Assembly: GCF_002006795.1 (NCBI RefSeq)
Contig: NZ_MVDN01000001.1
Coordinates: forward strand, 190,083-254,082
Source: Wohlfahrtiimonas populi
Lineage (GTDB): Bacteria; Pseudomonadota; Gammaproteobacteria; Cardiobacteriales; Wohlfahrtiimonadaceae
DNA: 64,000 nt
Direction: 5' to 3'
The translations under genes and the position numbers were made by a program. Position 1 is the first letter of the stretch, and every line of letters starts with the position of its first letter. Below the pieces are notes generated by a model. The model did no database searches. It was not told the DNA's origin and was given only the letters and a program-made list of their open reading frames with translations. Below, one piece after another: positions 18,174 through 40,654 of the stretch.

Positions 18174-18297
18174 GAAATAAAATTCACATATATTGACTAG
18201 ATATTTGATTTCCATGTACTACACAGACCTAGCATTAACAACTCAGATATATGTTTATTAATCTAATTCCATTAGTGTTATACACATAGATTATTCC

Positions 18298-19957: not shown

Positions 19958-22900
19958 ATTGAAATCACCTTTAAAACCTCTTTAAGAATAATCTCATTAT
20001 GATAAGTTTCATTATCCTTGTACCCGAATGTATTAATATGCTCTATCTTAAATTCTTTCTCTATAATATTACAAATTTTAAATATTCCTGTCCCACCTTC
20101 TTTTTGAGATGCAGCAACCATCAATTCAGGATTATTATAGGCCACTCTATACTTATCTAGTTCTTGATTTTTAGCAATATAATCTACACTCAAGCTATTA
20201 TTTATAAAAGATAAAATTAAATCATCATTTTGAGAAGATATTTCAACTTTTATTAATAACTGATTTGTAGAAAGTTTGCTTTTACTAAGTGCATTTTCAA
20301 AAATAATATAAAATATATCCACAAAGCTAGATAAATAGCGTGATTTAAACTTATGATTTCCTGTTTGTTTTAAACTAATATTGACATTCGTTGCACGCTT
20401 AGCAATTTCAATAGCAGTGTTAATCTCAAATTCATCTACATGGTTTACAAGAGACCGTTTAAACCAAGAAGATATATTAGTTAATTGAGTATTCAGACTT
20501 TCTCTCGATTTTCTAACGGAACTTGAAAACAATGATGCTTCATCTTGATTTGTACAGATTAAAGCAACATTTTTATCCAACTGAGTAAATAGTTCATCAA
20601 ACTTATTTAATGACTTATTTTCTATAGCTTCTCTAACATTAGATAAATTAATATCTGTTTTATACCATAACCATTCTAATGTGATATCAATTAAATGATT
20701 GTAATCCCTATCTCCTACTAATGCTTGAATATACAAGGATTCATACTCTGATAAAGAATAATCAAATAATACCTTATTTTCGTCACTATCGACCTGAATA
20801 GAACTAATTGCTCTTTCCAAACATCTTATTTGAAGCCAACTGTCATTAATCTCATTAATTATTTTTTCATATTCAATTGTGAAATTATATAAATGCTTAG
20901 ATAACTCACTAGTATCAGTGATAGATTTAAGTTTAGAAACCCATAGTTTATTTTCTTTAATTTCTCCTGTATGAAGGTCACTAGTTGCCCACAATGATTC
21001 ATTTTGTACAGGTTTTCTTAGAGCTGTAGGAAGAACACCATGTCTAATACGCGTACTTAAATAACTATTCAGCCCTTTATCGCCAAATGTAAATTCATCC
21101 CTTAACGTTTTAATTAAATTATAAAAAATTTTATTTTTTTCATTAAGCACTATGCTATTTCCAAAAGTTAAAAGTGTAATTTTTTGGGATAATTCAAAAA
21201 CTTCCTGTGTCTCCTTATCTTTTACTAATGAATTAATAAACGTTAATATAAACTCATCATTAAAACCAGTATAATTCTGTTTTTTTAAATCTGTAAATCT
21301 AACAAATAAATCTTTAAAATTTTTGAAGACAGTATCTTTAAATAAAGTAATATCCACATATATTCTACTCTGATCAACTTGCGCTGCTGCCTTTCTAAAT
21401 ACTTCTTCTTTCGTAATATGTTTAATTTCTTCTACTAAAGAATCTCGAGATATACCCTTTTCTATCAATTCATTACAAATTTTAATTCGACATAGATCTA
21501 TTTCTTGTTTATCTTCAAATAACATTGATAGCTTCATGTTATTTATCGTACAAACATATTCTAAAAAATAATCAATTTTTTCATCTGAATAACCAAGATT
21601 ATTTTCTAATAACTCAATAGGACTTTTTAAATTGTTTTTAGTGATAAAATTATCAAAACTAGCTCTTAATGCAGGTCTATATCTATCATCACTGTATTTA
21701 CAATATAGTGATAAGCTGATAGGAATATTTATACTATTACTACTAGATACTAAATCTCTTGCATGATAGGCAACTTTGTCAATATCAAATATTAATATAT
21801 TATTTTTATCTTTAAGCACGTATTCTACAACAATAGTAATAGCTTGTTCTATATACCCTGCTTCAAAGTTCATATCAACTAACAACTTCAAAATATCATA
21901 AAAATCAAGTCCCTTAGAATCTTTAATAGATTCTTTTAATATTTGAATTGCTTGATCTTGGTTACCTTGACTAAAATAAATTATCGCTTCATGCTTCTTT
22001 AACCTGTGTTTATCAACAGTTACTAGTAAGCTATTATGATTCGTGTTCTTATATTCATATAAGTCTAAAAAAAAATTAGCTGTGGTTGATTTAATACAAT
22101 TTTGTTGCAAATACTTAACAAAATATTCTTTGTTTTTTCCATGTAAATAAAGTAATTTTTGAGGTGTATCATCTTTAGATTTTAAAGCTGCTATCTTAGA
22201 TAAACTCTTAAATTTATTCCTTCCAATAAATTTAGATTCGCGAGAAACGAATAATAAAAGCTCTTGAAACCAACTAATCCCATCAAAAGCATAACAATAA
22301 GTAAGCAAAGATGAAAAGGCAGATGAATAATCTTCTTTTTTTAATAATATTGATGTCATATATCTAAGTATTTTTCCTAAAATCCCCTCATCAAATACAA
22401 ATGGAAAGTTTGAAGGTAATCTTGATATGGATTTACTTAATATTTCAAATTCAATATACTTCAAAGGTTTATTAACATAAATTGAGCGAGCAATTTCTTC
22501 ATATTTACCCTGTGTATATAAATCAAGAACAGGTAATTCAAAATTAAAACTTGGCTTTTCTGGGTTTAAGCTATAAAAATTTAAGCAATTATTAACGATA
22601 GGGTGATAACAAATTTTATTTAATTTAATGATTACATTTTTAATATGGTATGGTAAATTAGCATCAAAAGCATGATTCTTAGTGGAGCTTTCTATATATG
22701 AAATTAGAGCTTTATATATATCTATAATAGAACTTTGTTTTTCATATTTCAAAACTCCATTATAATTAATCTCAAAATCCAGCAAATAATCTTTAGGAGT
22801 TATTTTATATAGTAAAAAACTTTTAAACTCATCATCAGGAAATCTCATAATTTGCTTTCGAAACGTATCAGCTAAGCTTGTATGAATATTATTTTCATCA

Positions 22901-23436
22901 TAACGATCAACAATATATTTTAATAATACTTTAAAAAAATCACTATAGCCTTTATTGTTATTTAAATCTGAAATCAATTTAAAATATTTTACCTCTTCCC
23001 CTGAAATTTTAAGAATAGATCCCCGAATACCAATAGACCAAGTTGATAAACCGCACTCTCTATCAATTTCATCTAGAATTTCTATCGATGCTTCATAATT
23101 CTCTATGAGAATTTGTTCCTCTAATTTTTCTTCTAATTTCCTAAACTTCTTTATTCTCTTCTCATGATGGGTAACTACCCCGACACACCATGCTAAATTT
23201 ACTCTCAAATCTGATAAAGGTAGATTAACATTATAGAAGAGTGAGAAATTAGAGTTTAAACTCAAATTTATTTGTTCAGAAAACTCAGGAAAAATAGAAA
23301 CTCGTCCAATTAAACGCTCTATCTCATCATAATTTAGACATTTATGATAACGTTGGACCCAAGATGATTTGTTCTTAACACTTAAAACATATCGACTTAA
23401 ATTATTAACTTTTTTCTTATTTTTAGCCCTACTCAT
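19954..23436 (-). CDS. dtcA: Detocs DtcA-like giant sensor histidine kinase
   Basis: An 1160-residue protein, almost wholly alpha-helical by composition (TPR-like), ending in an HATPase domain (about residues 1040-1160) with an N-box FENALSKSK and a glycine box GGTGIFKI. The DxGxG box is not obvious. No classical H-box His is seen near the HATPase; a conspicuous RIRHG at H799 is one candidate phosphorylation site. No transmembrane helix or signal peptide is evident, so sensing is probably cytosolic. Described DtcA proteins have a similar large N-terminal sensor. I start at the ATG at 23436, which overlaps the preceding gene stop (ATGAGTAG) and follows GGTGG; an in-frame ATG at 23457 is possible. 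The gene is very A+T-rich. Confidence 0.8.
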   Translation of the reverse strand: MSRAKNKKKVNNLSRYVLSVKNKSSWVQRYHKCLNYDEIERLIGRVSIFPEFSEQINLSLNSNFSLFYNVNLPLSDLRVNLAWCVGVVTHHEKRIKKFRKLEEKLEEQILIENYEASIEILDEIDRECGLSTWSIGIRGSILKISGEEVKYFKLISDLNNNKGYSDFFKVLLKYIVDRYDENNIHTSLADTFRKQIMRFPDDEFKSFLLYKITPKDYLLDFEINYNGVLKYEKQSSIIDIYKALISYIESSTKNHAFDANLPYHIKNVIIKLNKICYHPIVNNCLNFYSLNPEKPSFNFELPVLDLYTQGKYEEIARSIYVNKPLKYIEFEILSKSISRLPSNFPFVFDEGILGKILRYMTSILLKKEDYSSAFSSLLTYCYAFDGISWFQELLLFVSRESKFIGRNKFKSLSKIAALKSKDDTPQKLLYLHGKNKEYFVKYLQQNCIKSTTANFFLDLYEYKNTNHNSLLVTVDKHRLKKHEAIIYFSQGNQDQAIQILKESIKDSKGLDFYDILKLLVDMNFEAGYIEQAITIVVEYVLKDKNNILIFDIDKVAYHARDLVSSSNSINIPISLSLYCKYSDDRYRPALRASFDNFITKNNLKSPIELLENNLGYSDEKIDYFLEYVCTINNMKLSMLFEDKQEIDLCRIKICNELIEKGISRDSLVEEIKHITKEEVFRKAAAQVDQSRIYVDITLFKDTVFKNFKDLFVRFTDLKKQNYTGFNDEFILTFINSLVKDKETQEVFELSQKITLLTFGNSIVLNEKNKIFYNLIKTLRDEFTFGDKGLNSYLSTRIRHGVLPTALRKPVQNESLWATSDLHTGEIKENKLWVSKLKSITDTSELSKHLYNFTIEYEKIINEINDSWLQIRCLERAISSIQVDSDENKVLFDYSLSEYESLYIQALVGDRDYNHLIDITLEWLWYKTDINLSNVREAIENKSLNKFDELFTQLDKNVALICTNQDEASLFSSSVRKSRESLNTQLTNISSWFKRSLVNHVDEFEINTAIEIAKRATNVNISLKQTGNHKFKSRYLSSFVDIFYIIFENALSKSKLSTNQLLIKVEISSQNDDLILSFINNSLSVDYIAKNQELDKYRVAYNNPELMVAASQKEGGTGIFKICNIIEKEFKIEHINTFGYKDNETYHNEIILKEVLKVISI

Positions 23437-23893
23437 AATTTCCACCCATGGCTCCATCTAATTTTTCTATATTCTTCATTGAGGGAACTATCTCACTCCA
23501 TTTATTATGAGTATCTAAATAAATATCTGTTACCTGTCTAATTAAAATCTTATCTTTTTCTTCAGTTTTTACATTATAAAAACCAATATCGAATTGATAT
23601 AATTCTATTTCAACTTCAAATTTTCTTTGAGCTGTACGATAAATGTACCATAAATTCTGCGGTTTTCTAATTTGAAGCCAAGCAGTTAAGATCGCTGCAA
23701 TCAATGATAATACCGAGGGTATAATCTTTCCATATACAAGCCCTGAACCAAAAGCAATAAATATTGGGGCACTCATACCAAATAAAATAATAATTCTTAC
23801 TCCCCATAAAGCCTCCAATTTATTATGGTTGGCTTTTTTTTTCATGTCTAAAATTTTTGTCTTAACTAAATTTACAGCATTATTTTCTATCAT
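23429..23893 (-). CDS. Two-TM SLATT/DUF4231-like membrane protein
   Basis: A 154-residue protein with two hydrophobic segments (about residues 31-52 and 57-73) separated by a tight turn, then a soluble region with WYIYRTAQRKFEVEIELY. This W-x2-R/aq-x-E arrangement after two helices resembles DUF4231 and the SLATT family, which are predicted pore-forming effectors in nucleotide-triggered conflict systems. Assignment is by pattern, so a divergent match is possible. It is the first gene of the operon and overlaps dtcA by eight bases, implying fixed coupling. It could be a second effector, a membrane anchor for the kinase or a sensor. It is not part of the three-gene Detocs core as I know it. Confidence 0.6.
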   Translation of the reverse strand: MIENNAVNLVKTKILDMKKKANHNKLEALWGVRIIILFGMSAPIFIAFGSGLVYGKIIPSVLSLIAAILTAWLQIRKPQNLWYIYRTAQRKFEVEIELYQFDIGFYNVKTEEKDKILIRQVTDIYLDTHNKWSEIVPSMKNIEKLDGAMGGNYE

Positions 23894-24305
23894 AAATAAA
23901 ACCTTAGAATTACATTACAGCAAAATATAAAAATTATAATATAGACTATCTTAGTATAAAGAAGGATTATTAAATATAAGTTACAATCCTCCACACTCTA
24001 TAACTTTCTTAATTATAGAGTGTATTTCAATAAGGTAATTATTACCCACTATCGAAAGCTTTTTGACCTCTTTTAAAGAATGAACGGTATATCACAAAAA
24101 TTACAAAGCTAGTAATGAAGATAAGCCTAGTAGTGCTAAATATTTTGAGCTTGAGTACAATCAAATTAGGATTCAAAAGGATTAAGCCTAATCTCGTCAA
24201 TACGACTTGTAAGCTTATATTATAAGCGCAATGCTACATACTGAAAATATCTTAAGTTAAAATATTTATATTTGACAGCATGGAGCATCTTTTCCTTTAT
24301 ATCAT
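23894..24305. other. 412-bp non-coding gap with a perfect 10-bp hairpin
   Basis: No convincing gene. A perfect inverted repeat CACTCTATAA (23994-24003) and TTATAGAGTG (24013-24022) with a 9-base loop is the main structure; it may end transcription from the WYL gene, which is read towards it. A TATAAT-like -10 on the minus strand (23933-23938) may serve the two-TM/Detocs operon. A 36-codon open stretch from 24116 looks like chance or a relic. Confidence 0.5.
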
Positions 24306-25205
24306 TTATTGTGAAAATCCTGGTGCTATTTTCATGGATGAAATATTCCGTAATTCTTTTAGGTTATTTAAACGTAATGGATATTCATAAGGGTTTAATT
24401 CAGCATCTCTAGAACAATCGACTCTTAAATCGATTAAACTAAAACCAAGCAATGCTTCTGACACAACAATTTCTCTGATACCTAAATCTTGCATGCCCAA
24501 ATCCAACATTTGGCTTTCAGGGTGTAAAGCTTTAGGATGTGGAATTAATTGAACATTTCGATAACGGTTCCAGTCATCATCCATATCTTTACTTATTCCG
24601 TGCCCGGCTAAAGGCATAGCATTTTTATCAACAGCTAACACTCGACTAAATTTGAACGTTTTATAACACTTTTGTATAACGTCGCGACTCAACGGAAAGT
24701 TATCCGTATCAATCATCTCAGGTATTTCAAATGCTCTGAAATACCAAGAATTCCCGGCCTTAAATAAACTATGTGGTCGAATAGTCTTGGTAGTACGCCC
24801 TGAAGAAGTTGAAAAATACTCTATTTTCAGCCATTCATTATTCACAATTGCTCGTGTAATTTCAGAAACAATCATTGTATTTAAATTCGTAAAACTCTTT
24901 AAATACTCGCTGCCATATTGCTCCACAGCAAATTTATTAGATATTGTTCCATAAGCGATATATTGCAAAGCCCCTTCTACTGAATGCTCATAACATGCCT
25001 TAAAACTTTTCGAGATCACATACCCATTACGAGCCCCCATAAAAATCATTTGACCAGGGGACTCCTCTAGATAGCTAGCAATCAGCCGACTAGCTGTAGC
25101 CTCACCAATAGAAAACCGAGCCACCAACTCACTTCTAGTTAAAACTCCCTTAAATAATAATAAGAACTCTATAAACTGATATTTTCCCTGTAAAGCTACA
25201 TCCAT
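24306..25205 (-). CDS. BrxR/CapW-type WYL-domain transcription regulator
   Basis: A 299-residue regulator, the typical BrxR/CapW length. It has an N-terminal winged helix-turn-helix (FIEFLLLFKGVLTRSELV then IGEATASRLIASYLE), a central WYL domain (about 125-200, IRPHSLFKAGNSWYFRAFE) and a C-terminal WCX-like segment. BrxR/CapW proteins repress BREX, CBASS and other defence operons, often from a divergent position, and may respond to nucleic-acid ligands. It is divergent from the Wadjet-like operon, and near-identical palindromes lie close to both starts, so control of both transcripts is likely. What relieves repression is unknown. Confidence 0.85.
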   Translation of the reverse strand: MDVALQGKYQFIEFLLLFKGVLTRSELVARFSIGEATASRLIASYLEESPGQMIFMGARNGYVISKSFKACYEHSVEGALQYIAYGTISNKFAVEQYGSEYLKSFTNLNTMIVSEITRAIVNNEWLKIEYFSTSSGRTTKTIRPHSLFKAGNSWYFRAFEIPEMIDTDNFPLSRDVIQKCYKTFKFSRVLAVDKNAMPLAGHGISKDMDDDWNRYRNVQLIPHPKALHPESQMLDLGMQDLGIREIVVSEALLGFSLIDLRVDCSRDAELNPYEYPLRLNNLKELRNISSMKIAPGFSQ

Positions 25206-25221
25206 AACACACCAACTATAG

Positions 25222-25233
25222 TATCATTTGATA
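25222..25233. promoter_or_regulatory. Palindromic operator candidate, WYL-gene side
   Basis: TATCA TT TGATA, a perfect 5-2-5 palindrome 17 bp upstream of the regulator start. It is the same motif as at 25351-25364, 130 bp away centre to centre. Likely binding site for the BrxR-type product (inference). Confidence 0.65.
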
Positions 25234-25350
25234 TATAAATTATACTTAAAGAAAAAACTATTGCCATCTTAATTTAATAGTAAAAACTATAAAAACATAA
25301 TATACAAGATTGACAAGTGACTATATTATGATCATAATCCATTAACTTTA

Positions 25351-25364
25351 ATATCAAATGATAT
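25351..25364. promoter_or_regulatory. Palindromic operator candidate overlapping the jetD start
   Basis: ATATCA AA TGATAT, a perfect 6-2-6 palindrome whose last two bases are the first two of the jetD ATG at 25363. No ribosome-binding sequence is visible before that ATG, so translation may be leaderless, weak, or start at the next ATG (25369). Confidence 0.65.
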
Positions 25365-26166
25365 GAAAATGAAAACAATCCAAGAATTAGACAATATTAA
25401 GCAAGGAAAAGGGGTTAACTGGCCAACTCTTTATAAGAAGCTATCTCGCTTAAAAATTGATGATCAGTTAATTTACCAAGCAATTACCATCAAACAATAC
25501 AGTAAGAAAGTTTATGGTATTGATATTATTGATCATGATGCTTTTGAAAAAATTATCCAACTTGCGCAGCCTATCAATAAAAATAGTAGAGCAGCTGCAA
25601 GTATTGCTGGTAATACACATCAAATAAATGTTAACGGTGCTTTGCTCGTAGCTGTTACGGAGCAATCGGAAGCACCATATGTTCATGCTTTCACGCAAAG
25701 TTATCCATTGCCATATCCCAAAAAACAACATGCAGTCATCATAGAAAACCTCGAATGTTTCTTGCATTACAAAGATAGCTATCTATTTATGAGTCAATTA
25801 TGTGAAATATCACATGACATTGATGATATTGAATTTATCTATGCTGCAGGCAATAGCATCTCTAATCAGAATATCATTCCTTATTTAAAAGAATTTAAAG
25901 GGGATATTTTCTGCTTATTAGATATTGATATAGGTGGGTTACAAATTTACAAAAATCTGCTCAATAATGGACTATCAGTAGATAACACGCACTTTGTTAT
26001 CCCAAATGATATTGTACAAAGATTAAAAATATCTAGAAGAAAGGCCTTAAAGTCCGAACTCAATAAATTAAACAATTTTTTAAAAATTTCTAATCAAATT
26101 GATCAATTAATTGGGCTGATGCATTATTACCAAACAACTATAGAACAGGAGAGTTACCGTGCATAG
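25363..26166 (+). CDS. jetD: JetD-like Toprim-domain nuclease of a Wadjet-like system
   Basis: A 267-residue protein whose C-terminal half carries a Toprim-like pattern: HAVIIENLECF with E128, and CLLDIDIGGLQIY with D187 and D189, as in topoisomerase VI A-like JetD nucleases (DUF2220). In known Wadjet systems JetD cuts circular plasmids held by the JetABC SMC complex. It is shorter than the JetD proteins I recall (roughly 350-400 residues), and the N-terminal part is correspondingly reduced. It overlaps the SMC gene by eight bases and is first in the operon, whereas jetD is usually last. The family assignment rests on the motif and its SMC/MukEF-like neighbours. Confidence 0.75.
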   Translation: MKMKTIQELDNIKQGKGVNWPTLYKKLSRLKIDDQLIYQAITIKQYSKKVYGIDIIDHDAFEKIIQLAQPINKNSRAAASIAGNTHQINVNGALLVAVTEQSEAPYVHAFTQSYPLPYPKKQHAVIIENLECFLHYKDSYLFMSQLCEISHDIDDIEFIYAAGNSISNQNIIPYLKEFKGDIFCLLDIDIGGLQIYKNLLNNGLSVDNTHFVIPNDIVQRLKISRRKALKSELNKLNNFLKISNQIDQLIGLMHYYQTTIEQESYRA

Positions 26167-29116
26167 CGATTCATTATCCTTAAATTTGCAAAGCCAGTAT
26201 TCTATTAATGAGCTAATCTTCATTAATTCAGGTTCAAATTACTATGTTCGCCTCCCTATCAACAAATCTGCCGCACTATTTGCTGGGAATAATGAGGGTA
26301 AGACATCTTCTCTCTCCGCTCTTAAATTATTCCTCTTGCCCGAGGTAAATTTTAAGGGGAGCGCTAATAAATTTAATTTCTCATCAGGTGGCACACCTTT
26401 CTCTGATATTGCATCATTTCAATACTATTTTCCAAGCCCTGAATCATACATTATCTGTGAAGCAGAAAATCCAAGTCATCCTAATGGATTTTGTTGGGTA
26501 CTTTTCAAAAGTACTGATTACCACTACGATAGAATAGCTGTACCACACTCATATAATTATATTGAGCATTTATTCTGGAATTCCTCATCCATTAATAATG
26601 AAGAGATTGGTGCCTTGCATGAAGATATATCCATCAAAACAATCAAAGATAAACTTTTATCAAAACAGTATGGTGGAAAGTTAATTACAGACAAAAAAAT
26701 GATCAGTGAAGCCAGCTATTCGAGAACAACATCGCAAGACGATCACACAAGATTTTGCCTTCTCCCAATGGTTCAAAAATCATCTCCTGATAGCGTCAAA
26801 ACTGTACGATCTCTATTAGATATGGCTTTTGACCTAAGTAATGCTTCAACAAAATCACTTCCAATAGCCATTGGGTCTATTATCGATAGCAAGGGATTAA
26901 GTGTTGTTGAAAACGATGGTATTTTTCTTGATCTAGAAAGTAAATTAGACGAATGGCAAACATTACAAAAACAACAAAAATTTCTCTCTCAGGTAGAAGA
27001 ACAAACTCCTCAATGGCATCGATTTGAAGAAAACCTTAATACTTACATAGCAAAAAAATCAGATACAAAAGTGCTTTTTGGACAAGTTTCTCATTATGTA
27101 AATGAAGCATCTAGTTTATTCACTCAAGAATCCAAGTCTTTAAAAGAACAAACTGATCAACATGAGAAAACATTAAATATTGAAAATCAAAAACTGCATA
27201 AAATCCAAGAGACTATAACTGCCCTTTCTACTCGCATTGAAGATGCACAAGAAAATATTCAAAAAATTAATGATGCATTGAATGAAATAGAGACATTAAA
27301 GGCGCATTATGCAGAGAAAAATATCCATTTTATTGAGGAAATTATTAGTGATCTTAAACAACGAGAAATATCGATTAGTCAGAATGTATTAGCCTTACAA
27401 AATGATCAGGAAACAGAAAAAAGATTAACAGAGCTTACCAGGGAAATTAAACAGAAGCAGAGCCGATTAAATGCATTACAATCCTCATTGAAAAATATTC
27501 AAAATAAAAGTAGCTTTTTAGACCAGTTCTCAGAACATACAAGCTCTGTGCTCTTTAGCTTGAATGAAGATTTTACTAGCCTAACTACAACTACTTCAAC
27601 TGATGAAAAACAGATCATCACAGAATTTACTAATTTATTTAAGGATCAGAATGGGCAACTCTCTTTAAGTAATCATGCGTTCTCTAAAATCACATTTAAA
27701 AAATATTCCGATAAAGATGCTTCTTTAAATCTAACGAAAATAATTGAAGAGCTGCAAGCCCATATTACTAAGTTAGAAAACGATCGTTTATCTTTACATC
27801 AATACAGCAAAGCTTCCCCACAAGAGCGCCAACAGAACATATCAAAATTTGAAAAAGACAATGAAATCATCCAATCTCAATTGGATAATTTAATGGGAGA
27901 AACGAATTTACGCAAAAACCTTATAGATAACCAAAAGAAATTAGATTTAAATAATGATGATCTTGTACTACTAAAAGAATCACAAAATTCTTTACAAGAT
28001 CAAATTACTTATTTTAAAAATCAATTTCATCTTTCAAAATCAGCATATGATAAAAATGCAGAAAAATTAAAGTCTATACAAGATGTTAACAATACTCTAA
28101 ATACATTAGCTTTTTCTAATAGAGGTTTTCTTGATAATACTCCACCAACTAACACCATTATCACATTAAAGCCAATCAATGATTACGATCCGCAATATAT
28201 AAACTCATCAACCCAAAATATTAAAAACAATATTTCCTCTATCAATGAGTTAAATAATACCATCCTTCAATCTTTACGAACTTTTTCAGAATATAACTTT
28301 ATTGAAATGTCCCCTGAAGAAAAACATAATGTTAGCCTCGCAAATAGCTCGTTTAATACTTTTTATGAATCACTCAAAAAAACATTTGAAACATTAGATA
28401 TACAAAAAAATAGTTTTTATAATCGTCTACAGGCACATAATAATACTGTCGATACATCCATTAGCATTATCAATAAAATAAAAGGAATTATTGATGATTA
28501 TATTGATGGACTCAATCGACAATTATCGGGCTATCAAATATCCAATCTAGATAATGTCACAATTGACACCACATATCATCCTCAATATACAGCTGCTATT
28601 AAGGCTATGAGTAAAATTTCTCAAATACACAATAATACATATCCTCAAGAAATGTATGACCATCTCCAAGCATTTCAAGCTACATTTTATGTTAAATCCT
28701 CTAAAAAGATTGATATTGCTAAAATTATTGAAAAAATTAGCTATTCATTCTCTAGAAATGAAAAAAAAGAAGATATTCCACAATCCAATGGCACGAACTC
28801 TATGGTCAATGCAATTTTACTTGCGATCTTATTTAAAAGTATGATTCCTGAAGATTTAAAACTTCAACTACCTGTAGTATTTGATGAAGTTGGCAAACTA
28901 GATGAAGATAATTTAAATGAAATTTATAAAATTGTTACTGAACAAAACCTCATTCTATTTGTTGCAACACCCGACCCAACAGGTATTATCGCCAGTGTAT
29001 TAGACCTATACCATGACTTGTCATGTTTCCAAGCAATAGATGTTACAGTTTATGATAAAGCTAAGACAATCTACTTCCAAGGTATGGAAGAACGTTTAAT
29101 TAATTTAGAATTATAA
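26159..29116 (+). CDS. jetC: JetC/MksB-like SMC ATPase
   Basis: A 985-residue SMC-like protein. The N-terminal head has Walker A AGNNEGKTS (residues 42-50). Two long coiled-coil arms (about 290-430 and 500-660) follow, and the C-terminal head has a signature-like SNGTNSMVNAILLAILF and Walker B VVFDEVGKLD (FDE at 908-910). Such proteins are the loop-extruding motor of MukBEF, MksBEF and Wadjet. Co-occurrence with a Toprim nuclease points to Wadjet/MksBEFG function in plasmid exclusion. The initiation codon is GTG at 26159, inside the end of jetD, so translation is coupled. Type within the Wadjet classes cannot be settled by eye. Confidence 0.8.
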   Translation: MHSDSLSLNLQSQYSINELIFINSGSNYYVRLPINKSAALFAGNNEGKTSSLSALKLFLLPEVNFKGSANKFNFSSGGTPFSDIASFQYYFPSPESYIICEAENPSHPNGFCWVLFKSTDYHYDRIAVPHSYNYIEHLFWNSSSINNEEIGALHEDISIKTIKDKLLSKQYGGKLITDKKMISEASYSRTTSQDDHTRFCLLPMVQKSSPDSVKTVRSLLDMAFDLSNASTKSLPIAIGSIIDSKGLSVVENDGIFLDLESKLDEWQTLQKQQKFLSQVEEQTPQWHRFEENLNTYIAKKSDTKVLFGQVSHYVNEASSLFTQESKSLKEQTDQHEKTLNIENQKLHKIQETITALSTRIEDAQENIQKINDALNEIETLKAHYAEKNIHFIEEIISDLKQREISISQNVLALQNDQETEKRLTELTREIKQKQSRLNALQSSLKNIQNKSSFLDQFSEHTSSVLFSLNEDFTSLTTTTSTDEKQIITEFTNLFKDQNGQLSLSNHAFSKITFKKYSDKDASLNLTKIIEELQAHITKLENDRLSLHQYSKASPQERQQNISKFEKDNEIIQSQLDNLMGETNLRKNLIDNQKKLDLNNDDLVLLKESQNSLQDQITYFKNQFHLSKSAYDKNAEKLKSIQDVNNTLNTLAFSNRGFLDNTPPTNTIITLKPINDYDPQYINSSTQNIKNNISSINELNNTILQSLRTFSEYNFIEMSPEEKHNVSLANSSFNTFYESLKKTFETLDIQKNSFYNRLQAHNNTVDTSISIINKIKGIIDDYIDGLNRQLSGYQISNLDNVTIDTTYHPQYTAAIKAMSKISQIHNNTYPQEMYDHLQAFQATFYVKSSKKIDIAKIIEKISYSFSRNEKKEDIPQSNGTNSMVNAILLAILFKSMIPEDLKLQLPVVFDEVGKLDEDNLNEIYKIVTEQNLILFVATPDPTGIIASVLDLYHDLSCFQAIDVTVYDKAKTIYFQGMEERLINLEL

Positions 29117-29124
29117 TCATCATT

Positions 29125-30522
29125 ATGAAAACCAATGCGCAAAATACACTTGCTATCTTATTCCAACATATTGATATATTTTTCAATATTATTGACTACT
29201 ATAATTCAGAATCTAAAAATATTTCAGGATTTCATATATCTGTATATGAGCATGTTTTACAAAATTATATTCAACAGAGAATATCAGATACTAATGACCA
29301 AAAAAGGATTGCATCCGCATTATCTCTGCATAACTTAAACCAATGTAAATTATTAGCATACATTCATGATGCAAAAGGTATTTTTCGTATTCAAAACGAT
29401 CTTCTTTCTGTTATCAAAAACATAGATTCCACAAGACTAAGAGAGCTCGGGCAGCCAGATTTAGATGCTATTTATGCCCAAATTAGAACTCAATATGACT
29501 ATTTTACTCAACAGCAAGAAAATTATAGCCATCATAATCCAGGATTTATGGAACATATAGATGCTTTAATGGATATTCTGCAAGATGTCTTTTCCAAGAT
29601 AGAACATAATGTTAGAGCATTAGAAGGCAGTGCTAAACGCTTATCTGAAATTGTAGATAGTCACAACTTCGAAAAACACACACCAACAGAGCAAGTAGAA
29701 AAAGCTTTTGAGGAAATTACACGTATTTATCAACGCAATATATTGCCAACTCTAAATTTTCTTAATGAAAAAGCTATGGCCAAAGATTCATCAGCAATTT
29801 ATCTGATCAGAAAAATAAGAGAAAAACTCAACCAAACAACCTTCTATGAGGAAGCCAGCACCATATCAATTATAGAAATACGTTTATTATCATTTATCGA
29901 AGTCATTTCTGATATTCGTCGTAAACTTCATAGATATATTGAGATGAATCAAAAACAACGCGCGCTCTATAACGCTGTCGAACAACATTACAATGAATTA
30001 AACTCTTTAGTCATTAACCTACTAGATAGTAAATTAACAGGAAAAACCCTTTCTCATCAACATGAATTCTTTCATCCTGCAAAAATTTTCAATCAATTAA
30101 CCAGTTGGTCTCGTACCAATTTAACTAAACCATTAATTGAGCTACCTAATAATTTCAATACACAAGAAGCATATGAATATATTAGAAGTAAATTAGATAA
30201 TGTAGAGGCATTCAACAGTAAAAAGCATATTCCAACTAACAAAGTTAGAGATGTCAAAGAACATATTCTCAAACGTAAACGAGTAGAAAGAATTAAACGC
30301 TTAATGCGCTCATTTCATGCCGTAGATTGTGATGATCTTTATTTTGAAATCCATCACTATTTATCGGATAAGCTCGAGCAATATTCTCTCAAAGATATTT
30401 ATGATGCTAGGGCTTTTTTATCTGAGAAATATGCAGTTATTACCACATTACAACGTGGCACTATCACATATAACCAACAAGAACTTAGTTACCCTATTAA
30501 AAAGCTTGTGGAGAAAAAATAA
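29125..30522 (+). CDS. jetA: JetA/MksF-like kleisin subunit
   Basis: A 465-residue, mostly helical protein without recognisable enzymatic motifs. Its position 8 bp after the SMC gene, size and helical composition fit the kleisin (MukF/MksF/JetA) that bridges SMC heads and recruits the MukE-like subunit. The N terminus (LAILFQHIDIFFNIIDYYN) could form the winged-helix dimerisation region. The identification is mostly contextual. jetB starts two bases after its stop. An internal open frame at 30329-30541 overlaps the end and is rejected as a shadow. Confidence 0.65.
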   Translation: MKTNAQNTLAILFQHIDIFFNIIDYYNSESKNISGFHISVYEHVLQNYIQQRISDTNDQKRIASALSLHNLNQCKLLAYIHDAKGIFRIQNDLLSVIKNIDSTRLRELGQPDLDAIYAQIRTQYDYFTQQQENYSHHNPGFMEHIDALMDILQDVFSKIEHNVRALEGSAKRLSEIVDSHNFEKHTPTEQVEKAFEEITRIYQRNILPTLNFLNEKAMAKDSSAIYLIRKIREKLNQTTFYEEASTISIIEIRLLSFIEVISDIRRKLHRYIEMNQKQRALYNAVEQHYNELNSLVINLLDSKLTGKTLSHQHEFFHPAKIFNQLTSWSRTNLTKPLIELPNNFNTQEAYEYIRSKLDNVEAFNSKKHIPTNKVRDVKEHILKRKRVERIKRLMRSFHAVDCDDLYFEIHHYLSDKLEQYSLKDIYDARAFLSEKYAVITTLQRGTITYNQQELSYPIKKLVEKK

Positions 30523-30524
30523 AC

Positions 30525-31121
30525 ATGGAAATGCAATCTGACAATACTATGAATAATCACATCGTAAATATTGAACAACTAGATCCAATAGCTACTAAAG
30601 AAATTTATAAAGATTTCATTAGTGGAAAAGTTATCAATAAATACGATATGAGTAATAATGAATTCATTCTATCTGCTAAATTCTCTGAATTAATCAAACA
30701 CATCGATATTTATAAAAAGTTATATGACCTGCTCGGCTTTGAACTTATCGCTATTGGTGATGATTCCTATTATATTGCTCGACCAGAAAGAGACTCCTTA
30801 AATGAAATTGGCGCGAATATTCAAGTTATCCTAATCGTATTATGTCGCGGGCTAGCAACTCGTGGAATTTCACCAGAAATACTTAAAGATCCTAAAGGTG
30901 GAATCAATGCTCAAATTATCAATGACATTGGGTCAGAAGAAGAAACAGAAAGAATCTTAAAGGCTTGCGATATAGCTACTCCATTAGTTAAATCTATTGA
31001 AAGCATAATGGTTGACCGAGCTTTAATGCATAAAACCTCAGCTGATAGATATGTTTTATCTAATGCTGGTAGTTTTATGTATCGACTGTTGTTGGAAACA
31101 GATATGCAGCTTAGCCTTTAA
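30525..31121 (+). CDS. jetB: JetB/MksE-like small subunit (DUF4194-like)
   Basis: A 198-residue protein after the kleisin gene, in the size range of MukE/MksE/JetB (DUF4194). The predicted winged-helix content (FSELIKHIDIYKKLYDLLGFELIAIGDDSYYIARPE, quoted here only in outline by its two halves) resembles this family, with the Tyr-rich YYIARP strand typical of DUF4194-like proteins. It would bind the kleisin and DNA. It closes the four-gene operon; 157 bp follow before the metallophore importer. Confidence 0.65.
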   Translation: MEMQSDNTMNNHIVNIEQLDPIATKEIYKDFISGKVINKYDMSNNEFILSAKFSELIKHIDIYKKLYDLLGFELIAIGDDSYYIARPERDSLNEIGANIQVILIVLCRGLATRGISPEILKDPKGGINAQIINDIGSEEETERILKACDIATPLVKSIESIMVDRALMHKTSADRYVLSNAGSFMYRLLLETDMQLSL

Positions 31122-31167
31122 AAACTCTACATGTACAGCGAGTAAATATAGCACCTCATAATATAAA

Positions 31168-31186
31168 GATAATAATAAATATTAAA
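31168..31186 (+). promoter_or_regulatory. Candidate Fur box before the metallophore importer
   Basis: GATAATAATAAATATTAAA matches the 19-bp Fur consensus at 14 positions by my alignment. The region is A+T-rich, so chance similarity is possible, but location 93 bp upstream of an iron-type ABC importer favours it. Confidence 0.4.
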
Positions 31187-31278
31187 TACTAATGACAATC
31201 AATCGTATTTAATGTAGTATTTTTTGATAAATTTTTTCAATAGTGTCCTTTATTTAATTTAATCGATAGGTAAAAAAT

Positions 31279-32295
31279 ATGAAAAAAATATTCAAAAAAG
31301 CATTTCCTTTATTAGCAAGCATACCATTATTTACATCTCTCTCTTTTGCTGACAATAATCATTATCCTGTGAAGATTGAAAGTTGTGGCCATGTATTAAC
31401 ATTTGATAAAGCACCTGAAAAAGTTGTTGGTATTGGCCAAGGCACAGTTGAAATTTTATATTCTTTAGGACTCGCTGATAAAGTTGCAGGGACTGCATTA
31501 TGGGTTGAACCAGTGATGGAGGAATTTAAAGAAGTTAATGCTAAGATTGATGTATTGGCAGACAATGATGTAAGTTTTGAAAGCATTATTGCAAGAAAAC
31601 CAGATTTAATTACTAATCAATTTCAATGGCAAATTGGCCCAGTTGGTATTGTCGCTAGCGTTGAACAATTTGATGAATTAGGTATTCCTGTATATACATC
31701 ACCTGCAGACTGTGTTGCTAAAGATAATAGTGACGGTGGCGATGGTGTTCGTGCAAATGCATTTACTATGGATGTAATTTATCAAGAAATTTCAGAATTA
31801 GCTAAAATCTTTAATGTTGAAGATCGAGGTAATAAATTGATCAGTGATTTAAAAAATAGAGAAAATTTAGCTAAAGCAAAAGTTCAAGGTTTACCGAATA
31901 ATACTTCTGCTTTATTCTGGTTCTCAAGCGCTGATGCAGAATCTGACCCATATGTTGCAGGTTCAAAAGGTGCTCCAGGTTACATTATGTCAACGTTAGG
32001 ATTGAAAAATATTGTTGATACTGCTGAAGAGTGGCCGTCTGTGAGCTGGGAAACTATCGTAAGAGAAAGCCCAACAATGATTGTTGTTGGAGACATGAGT
32101 AGACGTCGTTTTGCTTTGGATGATGTGAAAGTAAAATTAGAATATTTAAATAATGACCCAGTACTAAAATTAATTCCAGCAGTAGAGAATCAGCGAATTG
32201 TGGTAATTGGTGCTCAATCAATGAATCCTACTTTAAGAACCATCGAAGGGCTAGAAAAAGTTGCTGATGCAATTTCTAAGATGAATTTACAATAA
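31279..32295 (+). CDS. Metallophore-type ABC transporter substrate-binding protein
   Basis: A 338-residue periplasmic protein of the Fe3+-siderophore/B12 class (Peripla_BP_2). A signal peptide is evident (PLLASIPLFTSLSFA, cleavage near residue 25). Class III features are visible: KAPEKVVGIGQGTVEILYSL, LGLADKVAGTA, ESIIARKPDLI and GYIMSTLGLKNIV. It starts a run of five same-strand genes: permease 5 bp downstream, ATPase, pseudoazurin and MATE exporter. Ligand cannot be told; a ferric metallophore is likeliest, with copper chelate or cobalamin as alternatives. Confidence 0.88.
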   Translation: MKKIFKKAFPLLASIPLFTSLSFADNNHYPVKIESCGHVLTFDKAPEKVVGIGQGTVEILYSLGLADKVAGTALWVEPVMEEFKEVNAKIDVLADNDVSFESIIARKPDLITNQFQWQIGPVGIVASVEQFDELGIPVYTSPADCVAKDNSDGGDGVRANAFTMDVIYQEISELAKIFNVEDRGNKLISDLKNRENLAKAKVQGLPNNTSALFWFSSADAESDPYVAGSKGAPGYIMSTLGLKNIVDTAEEWPSVSWETIVRESPTMIVVGDMSRRRFALDDVKVKLEYLNNDPVLKLIPAVENQRIVVIGAQSMNPTLRTIEGLEKVADAISKMNLQ

Positions 32296-32300
32296 AATTT

Positions 32301-33317
32301 ATGGCTTTATATATATCTAAACGCTTAGGATTGATAGTATTTGTAATACTTCTCCTAGGCGTTACTATTTTAATTGGTACATCAATTGGGGAAATATATA
32401 TCCCTTTTGATGTTGTATTGAAAACTATTGCTAATAAGCTATGGGATGCAGGCTATCCTTTGGATAGAATAGATGAAGGTATTGTTTGGAACTATCGTTT
32501 AAGTAGAACTGTCATTGCCGCATTGTGTGGTATGGCTCTCGCTCTTTCGGGGACTATATTACAAGCACTACTTAGAAATATGTTGGCAGACCCATATTTA
32601 TTAGGAATTTCTGCGGGTGCTTCTACGGGGGCTGTTGCTGTGGTTGTTTTGGGAATTGGGGCGGGTGCTCTTTCTGTTTCATTTGGTGCTTTTTTTGGTG
32701 CGATTACAGCGTTTATATTAGTTGCACTTTTAGCATTCAGAACAGGTAAGGGGAATGGCGGTGTTATTTTGGCAGGTATTGCAGGATCACAATTATTTAA
32801 CGCAATCACCTCATTTATTATTACCCATTCGGCAAGTGCAGAACAAACACGAGGCATTATGTTTTGGCTATTAGGCAGTTTATCTGGTGTTAGATGGCCT
32901 GATGTATCATTAGCTTTTCCAGTGACAGTATCAGGATTGTTAGTATGCTTATGGTATGCAAGATCATTAGATGCTTTTACCTTTGGCGCAGACTCAGCAG
33001 CTTCTTTAGGTATCCCTGTAAAACGCACTTATATTGTTTTAATTGTATGTGCAACATTAATGACAGCAACGATGGTTAGTATTGTGGGTGCTATTGGTTT
33101 TGTAGGGTTAGTAATTCCACATGCAACACGTGCAATTATAGGATTAAAACACCATAGGCTTTTGCCAACGGTCGCCATTGTTGGTGCAATCTTTTTAGTG
33201 GCTGCAGACATTGTTTCTCGTACAATTATTAAAGGTCAAGTATTGCCTATAGGTGTAATTACTGCATTGGTGGGAGCGCCTGTATTTGCATTAATATTAA
33301 GCCGGAGAGCTCGTTAA
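32301..33317 (+). CDS. FecCD-family ABC permease
   Basis: A 338-residue polytopic inner-membrane permease with about ten hydrophobic segments. FecCD/BtuC hallmarks are LPRTVIAALCGMALALSG-like LSRTVIAALCGMALALSG, LLRNMLADPYLLGISAGAS and GFVGLVIPHATR before the cytoplasmic coupling helix. It forms a homodimer or pairs with another permease; only one is present here, so a homodimer is expected. Genes for the binding protein and ATPase flank it within 5 bp on each side. Confidence 0.92.
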   Translation: MALYISKRLGLIVFVILLLGVTILIGTSIGEIYIPFDVVLKTIANKLWDAGYPLDRIDEGIVWNYRLSRTVIAALCGMALALSGTILQALLRNMLADPYLLGISAGASTGAVAVVVLGIGAGALSVSFGAFFGAITAFILVALLAFRTGKGNGGVILAGIAGSQLFNAITSFIITHSASAEQTRGIMFWLLGSLSGVRWPDVSLAFPVTVSGLLVCLWYARSLDAFTFGADSAASLGIPVKRTYIVLIVCATLMTATMVSIVGAIGFVGLVIPHATRAIIGLKHHRLLPTVAIVGAIFLVAADIVSRTIIKGQVLPIGVITALVGAPVFALILSRRAR

Positions 33318-33319
33318 TT

Positions 33320-34084
33320 ATGGCAATATCTGCAGAAAATTTATACTGGAAAAGTGGGAATAAACATATCATTAATGGTGTTTCTCTATCAGTAAAACCT
33401 AATGAGTTTGTTGGTATTGTCGGACCTAATGGCTCTGGGAAAAGCTCGCTAGTTTCTTTATTATCAGGCATTAAAAAGCCAACGAGTGGACATATTACTT
33501 TATTTGGACAGCCGTTAAATAAATTACCGCCTCGTTTAATTGCGCAACAATTGGCATTTGTTAAGCAACATATTGATACAGATGATCACATTACTGCAAA
33601 ACAATCTGTTGAGCTGGGGCGTACACCTTATTTAAGCCTATTATCCCCTTGGTCAAAACATGATGATGAGATAGTAGAAGAGGCATTATCAATTGTGGAT
33701 ATGATGGAAAAATCAAAACAATTGTGGCCAACCTTATCAGGAGGTGAAAGGCAGCGTCTTCACATAGCACGAGGGTTAGTACAAAAACCTAAAATGATTA
33801 TTTTAGATGAGCCTACTAATAATCTAGATGTCCATCATCAATTAAATTTACTTAATCTAGTTAAACAGCTAAAGCTAACGACCATTGCTGTGTTGCATGA
33901 TCTTAATCACGCTGCAATGTATTGTGATCGACTCATTGTTATACAAGGTGGAAAGATTGCGGCTGTCGGTACGCCTAAAGAAGTATTAACTAAAGAGTTT
34001 ATTAAGGAAATATTTAAAGTTGAGGTGGAATGCTATGAAGATTCCGAAGGTCAACCTTTTATTCGTTTTATCCAATCTTGTTAA
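33320..34084 (+). CDS. Metallophore ABC transporter ATP-binding protein
   Basis: A 254-residue FepC/BtuD-type ATPase. Walker A GPNGSGKSS (about residue 34), Q-loop region, signature LSGGERQRLHIARGL, Walker B MIILDEPTNNLD and the H-loop VLHDLNHAAMYCD are all intact. It follows the permease by two bases and overlaps the upstream leader of the cupredoxin gene. It powers uptake of the ligand captured by the product of 31279-32295. Confidence 0.94.
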   Translation: MAISAENLYWKSGNKHIINGVSLSVKPNEFVGIVGPNGSGKSSLVSLLSGIKKPTSGHITLFGQPLNKLPPRLIAQQLAFVKQHIDTDDHITAKQSVELGRTPYLSLLSPWSKHDDEIVEEALSIVDMMEKSKQLWPTLSGGERQRLHIARGLVQKPKMIILDEPTNNLDVHHQLNLLNLVKQLKLTTIAVLHDLNHAAMYCDRLIVIQGGKIAAVGTPKEVLTKEFIKEIFKVEVECYEDSEGQPFIRFIQSC

Positions 34085-34101
34085 AAATACGGAGAATTAA
34101 A

Positions 34102-34536
34102 ATGCGTCATGTATTAGTTATGGTTTTGAGTAGTGTGTTATTTTTAGGCAATGCACAAGCAGAAGTCCATGAAGTTAAAATGTTGAACAGAGGTGAAACT
34201 GGGTCAATGGTTTTTGAACCAGATTATTTAGCAATTCAACCAGGTGATTCTGTCAAATTTATAGCGACTCATAAGAGCCATAATGCAGCTTCTATTATTG
34301 AATTAATGCCAGAAAACACACCTGCATTTAAAGGGAAAATTAACGAAGAATTAGAAGTTAAATTTGATACGAGTGGTTTTTATGGCATCCAATGTACACC
34401 TCATTTTTCAATGGGCATGATTATGGTCATCAAAGTTGGTGATGATGAAGTATTGCCTAATGCTTTTAGAACGTATAAAGCACCAGGGAAGTCACATGAG
34501 CGTTTACAAAATATCATCACTAATCACAATCTATAA
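34102..34536 (+). CDS. Pseudoazurin-type cupredoxin
   Basis: A 144-residue secreted blue-copper protein. Signal peptide MRHVLVMVLSSVLFLGNAQA precedes a mature domain with the pseudoazurin ligand set: H60 (KSHNA), C98, H101 and M106 in QCTPHFSMGM, with exact Cys-x2-His-x4-Met spacing. GGAG at 34091-34094 supports the ATG at 34102. Pseudoazurins usually give electrons to nitrite or nitrous-oxide reductase, neither of which is in this window. Placement in a metallophore-uptake cluster is unusual and hints at a reductive or copper-linked role in metal uptake, which is inference. Confidence 0.85.
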   Translation: MRHVLVMVLSSVLFLGNAQAEVHEVKMLNRGETGSMVFEPDYLAIQPGDSVKFIATHKSHNAASIIELMPENTPAFKGKINEELEVKFDTSGFYGIQCTPHFSMGMIMVIKVGDDEVLPNAFRTYKAPGKSHERLQNIITNHNL

Positions 34537-34550
34537 CGACTAATTAGTTT

Positions 34551-35876
34551 ATGACTCATGCCTCAAATAACAAGCAACAAATAACTTTTCGAAATTATTT
34601 ATTGCTTGTTGTACCTTTAACGTTATCAACAATTACTGTTCCTATATTAGGCGCAATAGACACTGCATTGGTTGGGCATTTGCCTAACCCAAGTTTTATT
34701 GCTGGTGTTACAATTAGCACAATCATTTTTAACACGCTTTATTGGCTATTTGGTTTTTTAAGAATCAGTACTACTAGCTTTACAGCACAGGCTTTGGATA
34801 ATCTAAGCCATTTAAAAAGTGCATTTCTTCGGCCTTTATTCATTGCATTATTGTTAGGCACATTATTTATCATAGGAAAATCATTAATTTTTGATGTTTT
34901 TATTAAATTTTCCAATCCTAGCGCAGAAGTTTATTTTTATGCAAAAGAATACTTCGATATTCTAATTTTTGGTGCACCCTTTACTTTAATCAATTATGTA
35001 CTCATTGGATTTTTAATGGGGCGGTCATATGTAAAATTAGTGCTTTATCTACAAGTATTTATTAATATTGTTAATATTATATTATCTATATTATTTGTTT
35101 GGTATTTTAATATGGATGTTAAAGGTGTAGCCCTTTCAACCTTGCTGGCTCAAATTAGCACAATGATAATCGCTACCATTTTAGTCTATAGAATGGGGAT
35201 GTTTGATATCAGCATAGATGACCTAAAAGAATATTTTTCATGGGCATCACTGAAAGAAATTATACTGATTAATAGCGATTTAATGATAAGAACAGTTTGT
35301 TTATTAACAGTTATTAATTTATTTATTTCAAATAGCACCGCATTGGGTACAGAAATTCTCGCAGCAAATAGCATACTATTTCAAATTCAATACTTAATGG
35401 CATATATTTATGATGGTTTTGCCAATGCAGCCAGTATATTGAGTGGTCAAGCTAAAGGTAAAAAAGATATTCATTTATATAATCAAACGATTAAATATGC
35501 CATTGTTTCAGGGTGTGGTATTTCATTATTCTTAAGCTTAGTTTGGGTCACATTTGATCAAAATATACTTGGTTTATTTACAAATCAAGCGAATATTCTA
35601 GCACTAGCTATAGAATATAGTATATGGATGGCAATATTCCCTATCGTTGTTTCAATGGGCCTAATGATTTATGGCGTATTTTGTGGTATTAATTATACGT
35701 CTTCTATCCGCAACTCAATGATTATAGCTGTCATTATTTGGCTAATCTCATCTTTTCTCTTAATACCAAATTTTGGTAATGATGGTATATGGATCTCGTT
35801 CTTACTATTTTGTTTAGCACGATCATTACTTGTTTTTTGGCTAAATTTATCAAAAAAATTCTTTTTTAGAGATTAA
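34551..35876 (+). CDS. DinF-like MATE family efflux protein
   Basis: A 441-residue, twelve-helix cation-coupled exporter. Family features: LTLSTITVPILGAIDTALVGHL at the start (with the conserved Asp), LYWLFGFLRISTTSFTAQAL, and a second MATE repeat from about residue 230. It resembles the DinF branch. It starts 15 bp after the cupredoxin gene. MATE proteins export drugs and, in some operons, siderophores or methanobactin, so export of an apo-metallophore is possible although no biosynthetic genes are seen. It converges on tnsE with 27 bp between and no clear terminator. Confidence 0.87.
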   Translation: MTHASNNKQQITFRNYLLLVVPLTLSTITVPILGAIDTALVGHLPNPSFIAGVTISTIIFNTLYWLFGFLRISTTSFTAQALDNLSHLKSAFLRPLFIALLLGTLFIIGKSLIFDVFIKFSNPSAEVYFYAKEYFDILIFGAPFTLINYVLIGFLMGRSYVKLVLYLQVFINIVNIILSILFVWYFNMDVKGVALSTLLAQISTMIIATILVYRMGMFDISIDDLKEYFSWASLKEIILINSDLMIRTVCLLTVINLFISNSTALGTEILAANSILFQIQYLMAYIYDGFANAASILSGQAKGKKDIHLYNQTIKYAIVSGCGISLFLSLVWVTFDQNILGLFTNQANILALAIEYSIWMAIFPIVVSMGLMIYGVFCGINYTSSIRNSMIIAVIIWLISSFLLIPNFGNDGIWISFLLFCLARSLLVFWLNLSKKFFFRD

Positions 35877-35903
35877 TTTTTGTAGAGCCAAAGTAACAAC
35901 CAC

Positions 35904-38959: not shown

Positions 38960-38963
38960 GCTT

Positions 38964-40649: not shown

Positions 40650-40654
40650 CTAGC

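What the first reader, a model, noticed from the sequence alone, without database searches (positions are those of the whole stretch)
24306..31121. Wadjet-like SMC operon in unusual order under a BrxR/CapW-type regulator
A Toprim nuclease, SMC ATPase, kleisin-like and MukE-like gene run in the order D-C-A-B, with overlapping or nearly touching ends, and with a WYL regulator facing away. Familiar Wadjet operons put the nuclease last and are not, to my knowledge, typically paired with BrxR/CapW proteins. The short JetD (267 residues) and short JetC (985) add to the impression of a divergent branch.
Basis: partly seen in the sequence, partly recalled or inferred. Interest (0 to 1): 0.75.

Follow-up and report, generated by a model that had tools for sequence, protein, structure and literature searches.

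The report
Rearranged Wadjet-group operon under BrxR-family regulator
This is a probable anti-plasmid DNA-cutting machine of the Wadjet/MksBEF family whose four genes stand in an unusual order, conserved across gammaproteobacteria, next to a BrxR/CapW-type switch gene and carried here inside a Tn7-like jumping element; the defence-gene models tested do not recognise it.

Summary
Window 24306-31121 holds a BrxR/CapW-family WYL gene facing away from a tight four-gene operon: Toprim nuclease (267 aa), SMC (985), kleisin-like (465), MksE-like KITE (198), order D-C-A-B. The order is not a local accident: all 28 loci showing the operon whole or nearly whole, across many gammaproteobacterial genera, have it, and their SMC heads form one clade. 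The SMC matches MksB of MksBEF condensins end to end (hhalign E 2e-44), every KITE subunit hits Pfam MksE, and the nuclease model folds like MksG/topoisomerase VI-A with its catalytic acids conserved. Type I Wadjets in the same class run A-B-C-D, and PADLOC profiles that recognise them do not recognise this operon. A divergent BrxR-type gene is adjacent in 14 of 30 loci; here two conserved palindromes sit just behind the two divergent promoter-like sites. The locus is cargo of an intact 25.7-kb Tn7-like element at attTn7. Most likely it is a compact, repressed Wadjet-group nuclease-condensin that destroys small circular DNA; activity is inferred. Types II and III could not be sampled directly. 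New variant of a known kind; BrxR-Wadjet co-localisation in general was already reported.

The parts
24306..25205 (-). BrxR/CapW-family WYL transcription factor (wHTH-WYL-C-terminal extension), probable repressor
   Evidence: Pfam WYL 2.3e-7; full-length phmmer match to BrxR 7QFZ 3.5e-29, CapW 7TB5 1.4e-9, BrxR 7T8K 6.9e-8
25221..25234 (.). operator-like palindrome GTATCATTTGATAT between the WYL promoter-like site and the WYL start codon
   Evidence: conserved position in L008 and L004; binding not tested
25239..25267 (-). promoter-like site for the WYL gene (ATGGCA-17-TATAAT)
   Evidence: 10 of 12; consensus match only, site count in the region is at chance level
25310..25338 (+). promoter-like site for the D-C-A-B operon (TTGACA-17-CATAAT)
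   Evidence: 11 of 12, best in the region; TTGACA conserved in L008 and L004
25351..25364 (.). operator-like palindrome ATATCAAATGATAT between the operon promoter-like site and jetD
   Evidence: only exact copy in the 2.78-Mb genome; TATCAAATGAT identical in 3 of 3 close relatives
25363..26166 (+). JetD/MksG-like nuclease: N-terminal winged-helix-like domain + Toprim, compact (265-267 aa)
   Evidence: AF2 pLDDT 89; Foldseek 9o8p (TopoVI-A) 3.1e-5 and 8b7f (MksG) 1.7e-4, prob 1.00; E128, D189, E261, E263 invariant and D187 27/28
26159..29116 (+). SMC ATPase, MksB/JetC-like
   Evidence: Walker A NNEGKT, signature QSNGT, Walker B VVFDE; hhalign vs MksB E 2.4e-44 over 864 columns
29125..30522 (+). 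kleisin-like subunit (MksF/JetA-like)
   Evidence: N- and C-terminal winged-helix-like segments, low-confidence linker 320-376; hhalign vs MksF Prob 50.7, E 1.6e-4
30525..31121 (+). KITE subunit, MksE family (MksE/JetB)
   Evidence: PF21980 MksE 3.5e-13 here and in 24 of 24 family members
18038..43741 (.). intact Tn7-like element carrying the locus: left end 18038 with 3 TnsB-like sites, right end 43741 with 4 sites 20 bp apart, 5-bp duplication TTAAA on both sides
35904..43598 (-). tnsE, tnsD, tnsC, tnsB, tnsA of the carrier element
   Evidence: Pfam TnsE_C 2.7e-32, TnsD 1.3e-19 with TniQ 3.8e-18, Tn7_TnsC_Int 2.3e-14, Mu-transpos_C 1.1e-7, TnsA N and C domains
43767..45557 (-). glmS, whose 3' end is the attTn7 target; the right end lies about 25 bp beyond its stop codon
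   Evidence: SIS and GATase domains; C-terminus ...KSVTVE

Best explanation
A compact nuclease-bearing MksBEF-type condensin of the Wadjet group (order G-B-F-E in Mks terms, D-C-A-B in Jet terms). Proposed working: SMC (JetC), kleisin-like (JetA) and KITE (JetB) proteins form a dimeric ATP-driven loop extruder; when it has reeled in a whole small circular DNA it stalls and activates the JetD dimer, whose Toprim/winged-helix active site cuts the DNA. A BrxR/CapW-type repressor binds the two palindromes behind the divergent promoters, keeps the operon low, and is released by a ligand. In this genome the module is defence cargo of a Tn7-like element. Shown here: gene content, order, conservation, predicted fold and motifs, operator-like sites, the transposon. 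Inferred from the well-studied relatives: complex formation, extrusion, cleavage of circular DNA, repression.
For: 28 loci with the same order and one SMC clade; MksB profile match E 2e-44; MksE in all KITE members tested; TopoVI-A/MksG fold with the catalytic acids conserved, including two C-terminal glutamates like those proposed for JetD (PMC10123090); BrxR full-length match; operators conserved in relatives while the rest of the intergenic region drifts; defence neighbours: CBASS pair about 19 bp downstream in L019-L021, type I restriction HsdR in L023, TIR gene in L014, Detocs-like operon in the window; absent from all five congeners searched and present in few genomes of the family, hence accessory; ScpA present in the same genome, so a separate housekeeping condensin probably exists.
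Against: No activity data for any member. The kleisin assignment is only moderate. JetD is much shorter than the characterised nucleases. About half the family lacks the adjacent BrxR gene. No relative was found in the phage and viral collections searched, and two members sit on large plasmids (L002 599 kb, L003 320 kb), so the range of targets is unknown.
Confidence: 0.75

Rival explanations
1. An already defined Wadjet type (II or III) that happens to be divergent and would be recovered with better profiles.
For: Pfam DUF3584 hit just over cut-off (32.6 vs 31 bits); PADLOC JetC3 hit 3.9e-6; types are defined partly by operon organisation (PMC12647877).
Against: The JetC3 profile gives similar scores to coiled-coil proteins in 102 of 229 genomes, and the hit covers only coiled-coil residues 268-595; no JetA, JetB or JetD of type II or III is hit; the SMC (950-1000 aa) is far shorter than the JetC2/JetC3 models (1361/1472 positions); the best profile relative is MksB. 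But no type II/III locus was available for a direct tree or gene-order comparison.
Confidence: 0.15
2. A chromosome-organising MksBEF condensin whose nuclease homologue is regulatory or vestigial.
For: Closest SMC and KITE relatives are MksB/MksE; several Wadjet-group members lack the nuclease (PMC7617805).
Against: Toprim acids conserved over deep divergence; patchy distribution and transposon/plasmid location; ScpA present in the same genome; BrxR-type regulator and defence neighbours.
Confidence: 0.07
3. A Lamassu-type system (LmuB SMC with effector).
For: PADLOC LmuB hit 1.3e-6 to the SMC.
Against: The hit is coiled coil (259-785); the operon has MksE-type KITE and kleisin-like genes and a TopoVI-A-like nuclease, and no LmuA/LmuC hit.
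Confidence: 0.02

Closest known systems
MksBEF / MksBEFG condensins (PF21980 MksE; DUF7281-type nuclease beside some of them)
   Same: SMC aligns end to end, KITE in the same Pfam family, compact SMC size, kleisin profile in register, short TopoVI-A-like nuclease next to the operon in some
   Different: Mks operons run F-E-B(-G); here G-B-F-E; the SMC heads form a separate clade
Wadjet type I (JetABCD; E. coli GF4-3, P. aeruginosa PA14; C. glutamicum MksFEBG)
   Same: Four-component architecture, Toprim nuclease with the same active-site pattern, nearest solved nuclease homologue of JetD is MksG 8B7F
   Different: Order A-B-C-D; JetC about 1100-1220 aa, JetD about 380-430 aa; signature GKSGG vs QSNGT; PADLOC type I models do not convincingly detect the window's genes
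BrxR / CapW regulators (7QFZ, 7T8K, 7TB5)
   Same: Full-length homology; divergent upstream position as for CapW (PMC9122588); inverted repeats just behind the promoter as for BrxR (PMC9122601)
   Different: Operator sequence is its own; the controlled operon is neither BREX nor CBASS
Tn7 and defence cargo of Tn7-like elements
   Same: TnsABCDE, attTn7 next to glmS, 5-bp duplication; Wadjet JetD previously counted 34 times on Tn7-like elements (PMC8649781)
   Different: The cargo is this rearranged operon plus a Detocs-like one

Membership tests
Wadjet group (JetABCD/MksBEFG) | SMC ATPase with Walker A, signature and Walker B | tested here: met
   NNEGKT, QSNGT, VVFDE; conserved across the family
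Wadjet group (JetABCD/MksBEFG) | KITE subunit (MukE/MksE/JetB-like) | tested here: met
   PF21980 in 24/24
Wadjet group (JetABCD/MksBEFG) | kleisin (MukF/MksF/JetA-like) | tested here: inconclusive
   hhalign vs MksF Prob 50.7, E 1.6e-4, in register; winged-helix-like ends; no PDB fold hit
Wadjet group (JetABCD/MksBEFG) | JetD/MksG nuclease with winged-helix + Toprim domains and catalytic acids | tested here: met
   Foldseek MksG/TopoVI-A prob 1.00; E128, D189, E261, E263 invariant
Wadjet group (JetABCD/MksBEFG) | restricts circular plasmids | not testable with these tools
   needs a transformation assay
Wadjet type I | recognised by type I profiles | tested here: not met
   no JetA1/B1/C1 hit; JetD1 only 5.9e-4; type I members tested score about 1e-39 or better for their best model
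Wadjet type I | gene order A-B-C-D | tested here: not met
   D-C-A-B in all complete loci
Wadjet type II or III | type-specific profiles | tested here: not met
   JetC3 3.9e-6 and JetC2 0.056 over coiled coil only; no other subunit
Wadjet type II or III | type-specific gene order and position in an SMC tree | not tested
   no locus of type III found in 398 Pseudomonadota genomes; that search had no positive control
MksBEF(G) | MksB-like SMC over its whole length | tested here: met
   hhalign Prob 100, E 2.4e-44
MksBEF(G) | operon order F-E-B(-G) | tested here: not met
   order G-B-F-E
BrxR/CapW | wHTH-WYL-C-terminal extension over full length | tested here: met
   residues 8-299 vs 17-294 of 7QFZ, 3.5e-29
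BrxR/CapW | inverted-repeat operator at the controlled promoter | tested here: inconclusive
   two conserved palindromes in place; binding not tested
BrxR/CapW | ligand-releasable repression | not testable with these tools
   needs reporter and binding assays
Tn7-like transposon (carrier) | TnsABCDE, terminal TnsB sites, 5-bp duplication, attTn7 | tested here: met
Lamassu | LmuB with LmuA/LmuC effector set | tested here: not met
   only a coiled-coil LmuB hit; KITE and Toprim partners instead

The most novel reading that the evidence does not exclude
A distinct, so far unclassified branch of nuclease-bearing condensins (a fourth Wadjet type or an MksG-first Mks type) that is normally kept silent by a BrxR-family repressor and switched on by an invasion or damage signal, so that an anti-plasmid machine can itself ride on plasmids and Tn7-like elements without destroying its vehicle.
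Probability: 0.35. Interest if true: 0.7.

Novelty: new variant of a known kind. Interest (0 to 1): 0.5.

Why it matters
It extends the plasmid-restricting condensins to a conserved branch that the defence profiles tested overlook, so such systems are probably undercounted. It joins two active topics, Wadjet extrusion-cleavage and BrxR/CapW control, in one small locus, so regulation of a Wadjet-group system becomes directly testable. A compact SMC (about 985 aa) and a 267-aa nuclease would also be a convenient minimal machine for structural work. It suggests, still untested, how an anti-plasmid system might survive on plasmids and transposons.

Tried and rejected
Type III assignment from PADLOC JetC3/Pfam DUF3584: rejected as coiled-coil noise, since nearly half the class sample scores alike. 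Lamassu: rejected (coiled coil only). A second SMC operon suspected at 18298-23893 from gene sizes: rejected, it is Detocs-like plus SLATT. 'Housekeeping condensin of this organism': rejected, ScpA is present and congeners lack the operon. Sequence-level PDB searches with JetB, JetC and JetD profiles gave only chance or coiled-coil hits; the kleisin model gave no PDB match. Viral contigs and phages: no relatives. Type II/III comparison loci: not found.

Full report
OBSERVATION. The five reading frames exist at the stated coordinates with the stated lengths. jetD and the SMC gene overlap by 8 nt; the gaps between SMC, kleisin-like and KITE genes are 8 and 2 nt, so the four genes look like one operon. 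The WYL gene starts 157 nt away on the other strand. The jetD start may be the second in-frame ATG (25369), which matches the start in the close relative L004.

WHAT THE PROTEINS ARE. The regulator aligns over its full length with BrxR from E. fergusonii (7QFZ, 3.5e-29) and with CapW structures. The KITE protein and all 24 sampled relatives match Pfam MksE (PF21980). The nuclease has no significant family hit on its own (best Pfam E 0.054; PADLOC JetD1 5.9e-4), but 11 of 28 relatives hit JetD_C and 10 hit DUF7281, and its AlphaFold2 model (pLDDT 89) has as best PDB matches topoisomerase VI-A (3.1e-5) and MksG of C. glutamicum (1.7e-4), both at probability 1.00. E128, N129, D189, G192 and the EQE motif 261-263 are invariant in 28 sequences and D187 in 27; these resemble in motif pattern E236, D279 and E349/E351 of MksG (PMC10123090; the pairing is by motif, not by superposition). 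The SMC has an NNEGKT Walker A, a QSNGT signature and a VVFDE Walker B and aligns with MksB over 864 columns at E 2.4e-44. The kleisin-like protein is the weakest assignment: no Pfam hit, no PDB fold hit, but winged-helix-like segments at both ends with a low-confidence linker at 320-376, and a moderate, in-register profile match to MksF (Prob 50.7, E 1.6e-4) against none to type I JetA (Prob 2.7).

THE FAMILY. A scan of 84,980 species genomes with the SMC alignment, together with plasmid and whole-genome searches, gave about 32 loci. All those with a clear taxonomic label are gammaproteobacterial (Marinobacter, Halomonas, Pseudomonas, Alteromonadaceae, Colwellia, Shewanella, Methylophaga, Cycloclasticus, Acinetobacter, Enterovibrio, Photobacterium and others), apart from a weak, unexamined hit in Persicobacter. 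The scan used patterns derived from gammaproteobacterial members, so restriction to that class is not proven. In all 28 loci that show the operon whole or nearly whole the order is D-C-A-B; Photobacterium has two small extra genes between C and A, and L122 and L013 are slightly cut at one end. In a class sample the family was rare: two additional genomes (L122, L123) among 274. A WYL gene stands next to jetD and faces away in 14 of the 30 loci where that stretch is visible; in two Pseudomonas loci it lies about 2 kb upstream. Where present, WYL and SMC divergence are correlated (Spearman 0.48, permutation p 0.002), which fits shared descent but may partly reflect host relatedness.

COMPARISON WITH KNOWN TYPES. 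Among 274 gammaproteobacterial genomes 35 carried JetD_C genes; the inspected complete loci ran A-B-C-D, and the divergent ones tested were still typed as JetA1/B1/C1/D1 by PADLOC with strong scores. The window's genes get no comparable PADLOC hit; the JetC3 hit is at the coiled-coil background seen in 102 of 229 genomes. An unrooted SMC head tree (396 columns, LG+F+G4) separates D-C-A-B from the MksB, type I and MukB sets with ultrafast bootstrap 100; mean identity of the heads is 18% to MksB, 14% to type I and 15% to MukB. A compact A-B-C-D operon (413-185-936-277 aa) with a divergent BrxR-type gene (L111) groups with MksB, so BrxR pairing also occurs on the Mks side. Types II and III could not be sampled, which is the main gap in the novelty claim. 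A 2025 survey of the Wadjet group used criteria loose enough that it may have collected these operons unnamed (PMC7617805); its supplement could not be read.

REGULATION. The intergenic region has a promoter-like site on each strand (TTGACA-17-CATAAT at 25310-25338; ATGGCA-17-TATAAT at 25267-25239; promoter-like sites in the region as a whole are not more numerous than chance). Just behind each lies a palindrome of the form RTATCAWWTGATAT (25351-25364, 25221-25234). The exact palindrome is unique in the 2.78-Mb genome, and both sites are kept in the two nearest relatives, with one or two changes at the WYL side, although the rest of the region has drifted. BrxR binds inverted repeats just downstream of its promoter and CapW genes are divergent (PMC9122601, PMC9122588), so repression of both directions is the natural reading; it is inferred.

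CONTEXT. The operon is cargo of a complete Tn7-like element: tnsA-E, right end at 43741 with four TnsB-like sites 20 bp apart, left end at 18038 with three, TTAAA on both sides, about 25 bp beyond the glmS stop codon. The same element carries a Detocs-like operon with a SLATT gene, an iron/B12-type ABC importer and a MatE gene. Other family members lie beside CBASS genes (L019-L021, about 19 bp downstream), type I restriction (L023), a TIR gene (L014) and Tn7-type genes (L026). Wadjet genes on Tn7-like elements were counted before (PMC8649781).

MECHANISM AND NOVELTY. Gene content, order, conservation and predicted folds are shown. Loop extrusion, recognition of small circles and cleavage are carried over from type I Wadjet and MksBEFG and were not tested. 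The system is best filed as a new, regulator-linked, rearranged branch of the Wadjet/Mks group, not as a new kind of defence.

Noticed in passing
window 18038-43741: Intact Tn7-like transposon at attTn7 next to glmS, with TnsABCDE, both ends and a TTAAA duplication.
   Followed up: yes
window 18298-23893 (-): Detocs-like operon (PADLOC PDC-M60 A, B, C; response-regulator plus nucleoside-phosphorylase-type effector) with a SLATT (2TM effector) gene overlapping its first gene, possibly a second effector; the name Detocs is from memory.
   Followed up: partly
window 16146-18046 (-): PrrC-like AAA gene (PADLOC PDC-S06) in two frames and lacking its first ~176 profile positions, ending at the Tn7-like left end.
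   Followed up: no
L019 7319-9249, L020 14782-16721, L021 9707-11637: CBASS pair (SMODS synthase + S_4TM effector) follows the D-C-A-B operon by about 19 bp in the same direction, perhaps under the same BrxR-type regulator.
   Followed up: partly
L111 1174-7887: Compact A-B-C-D Mks-type operon (413-185-936-277 aa) with a divergent BrxR-type gene; its nuclease hits DUF7281.
   Followed up: partly
Pfam PF23947 (DUF7281); loci L148-L155: DUF7281 appears to be a compact JetD/MksG-like nuclease family, found just after MksB in two genomes (G180, G181) and in another, unexplained two-gene setting in others (L148, L150).
   Followed up: partly
own genome G000: ScpA is present but the SMC_hinge model finds nothing in this 99.5% complete genome; the housekeeping SMC may be divergent or lie in an assembly gap.
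   Followed up: no
L009 8037-9041: A Tus-type replication terminus protein gene lies directly upstream of jetD in Marinobacter salicampi.
   Followed up: no
L026 331-5089: TnsB/TnsC/TniQ homologues stand next to the D-C-A-B locus of a Shewanella, a second Tn7-type association.
   Followed up: partly
L002, L003: Two D-C-A-B operons sit on large circular plasmids (599 kb and 320 kb), so the system coexists with big plasmids.
   Followed up: no
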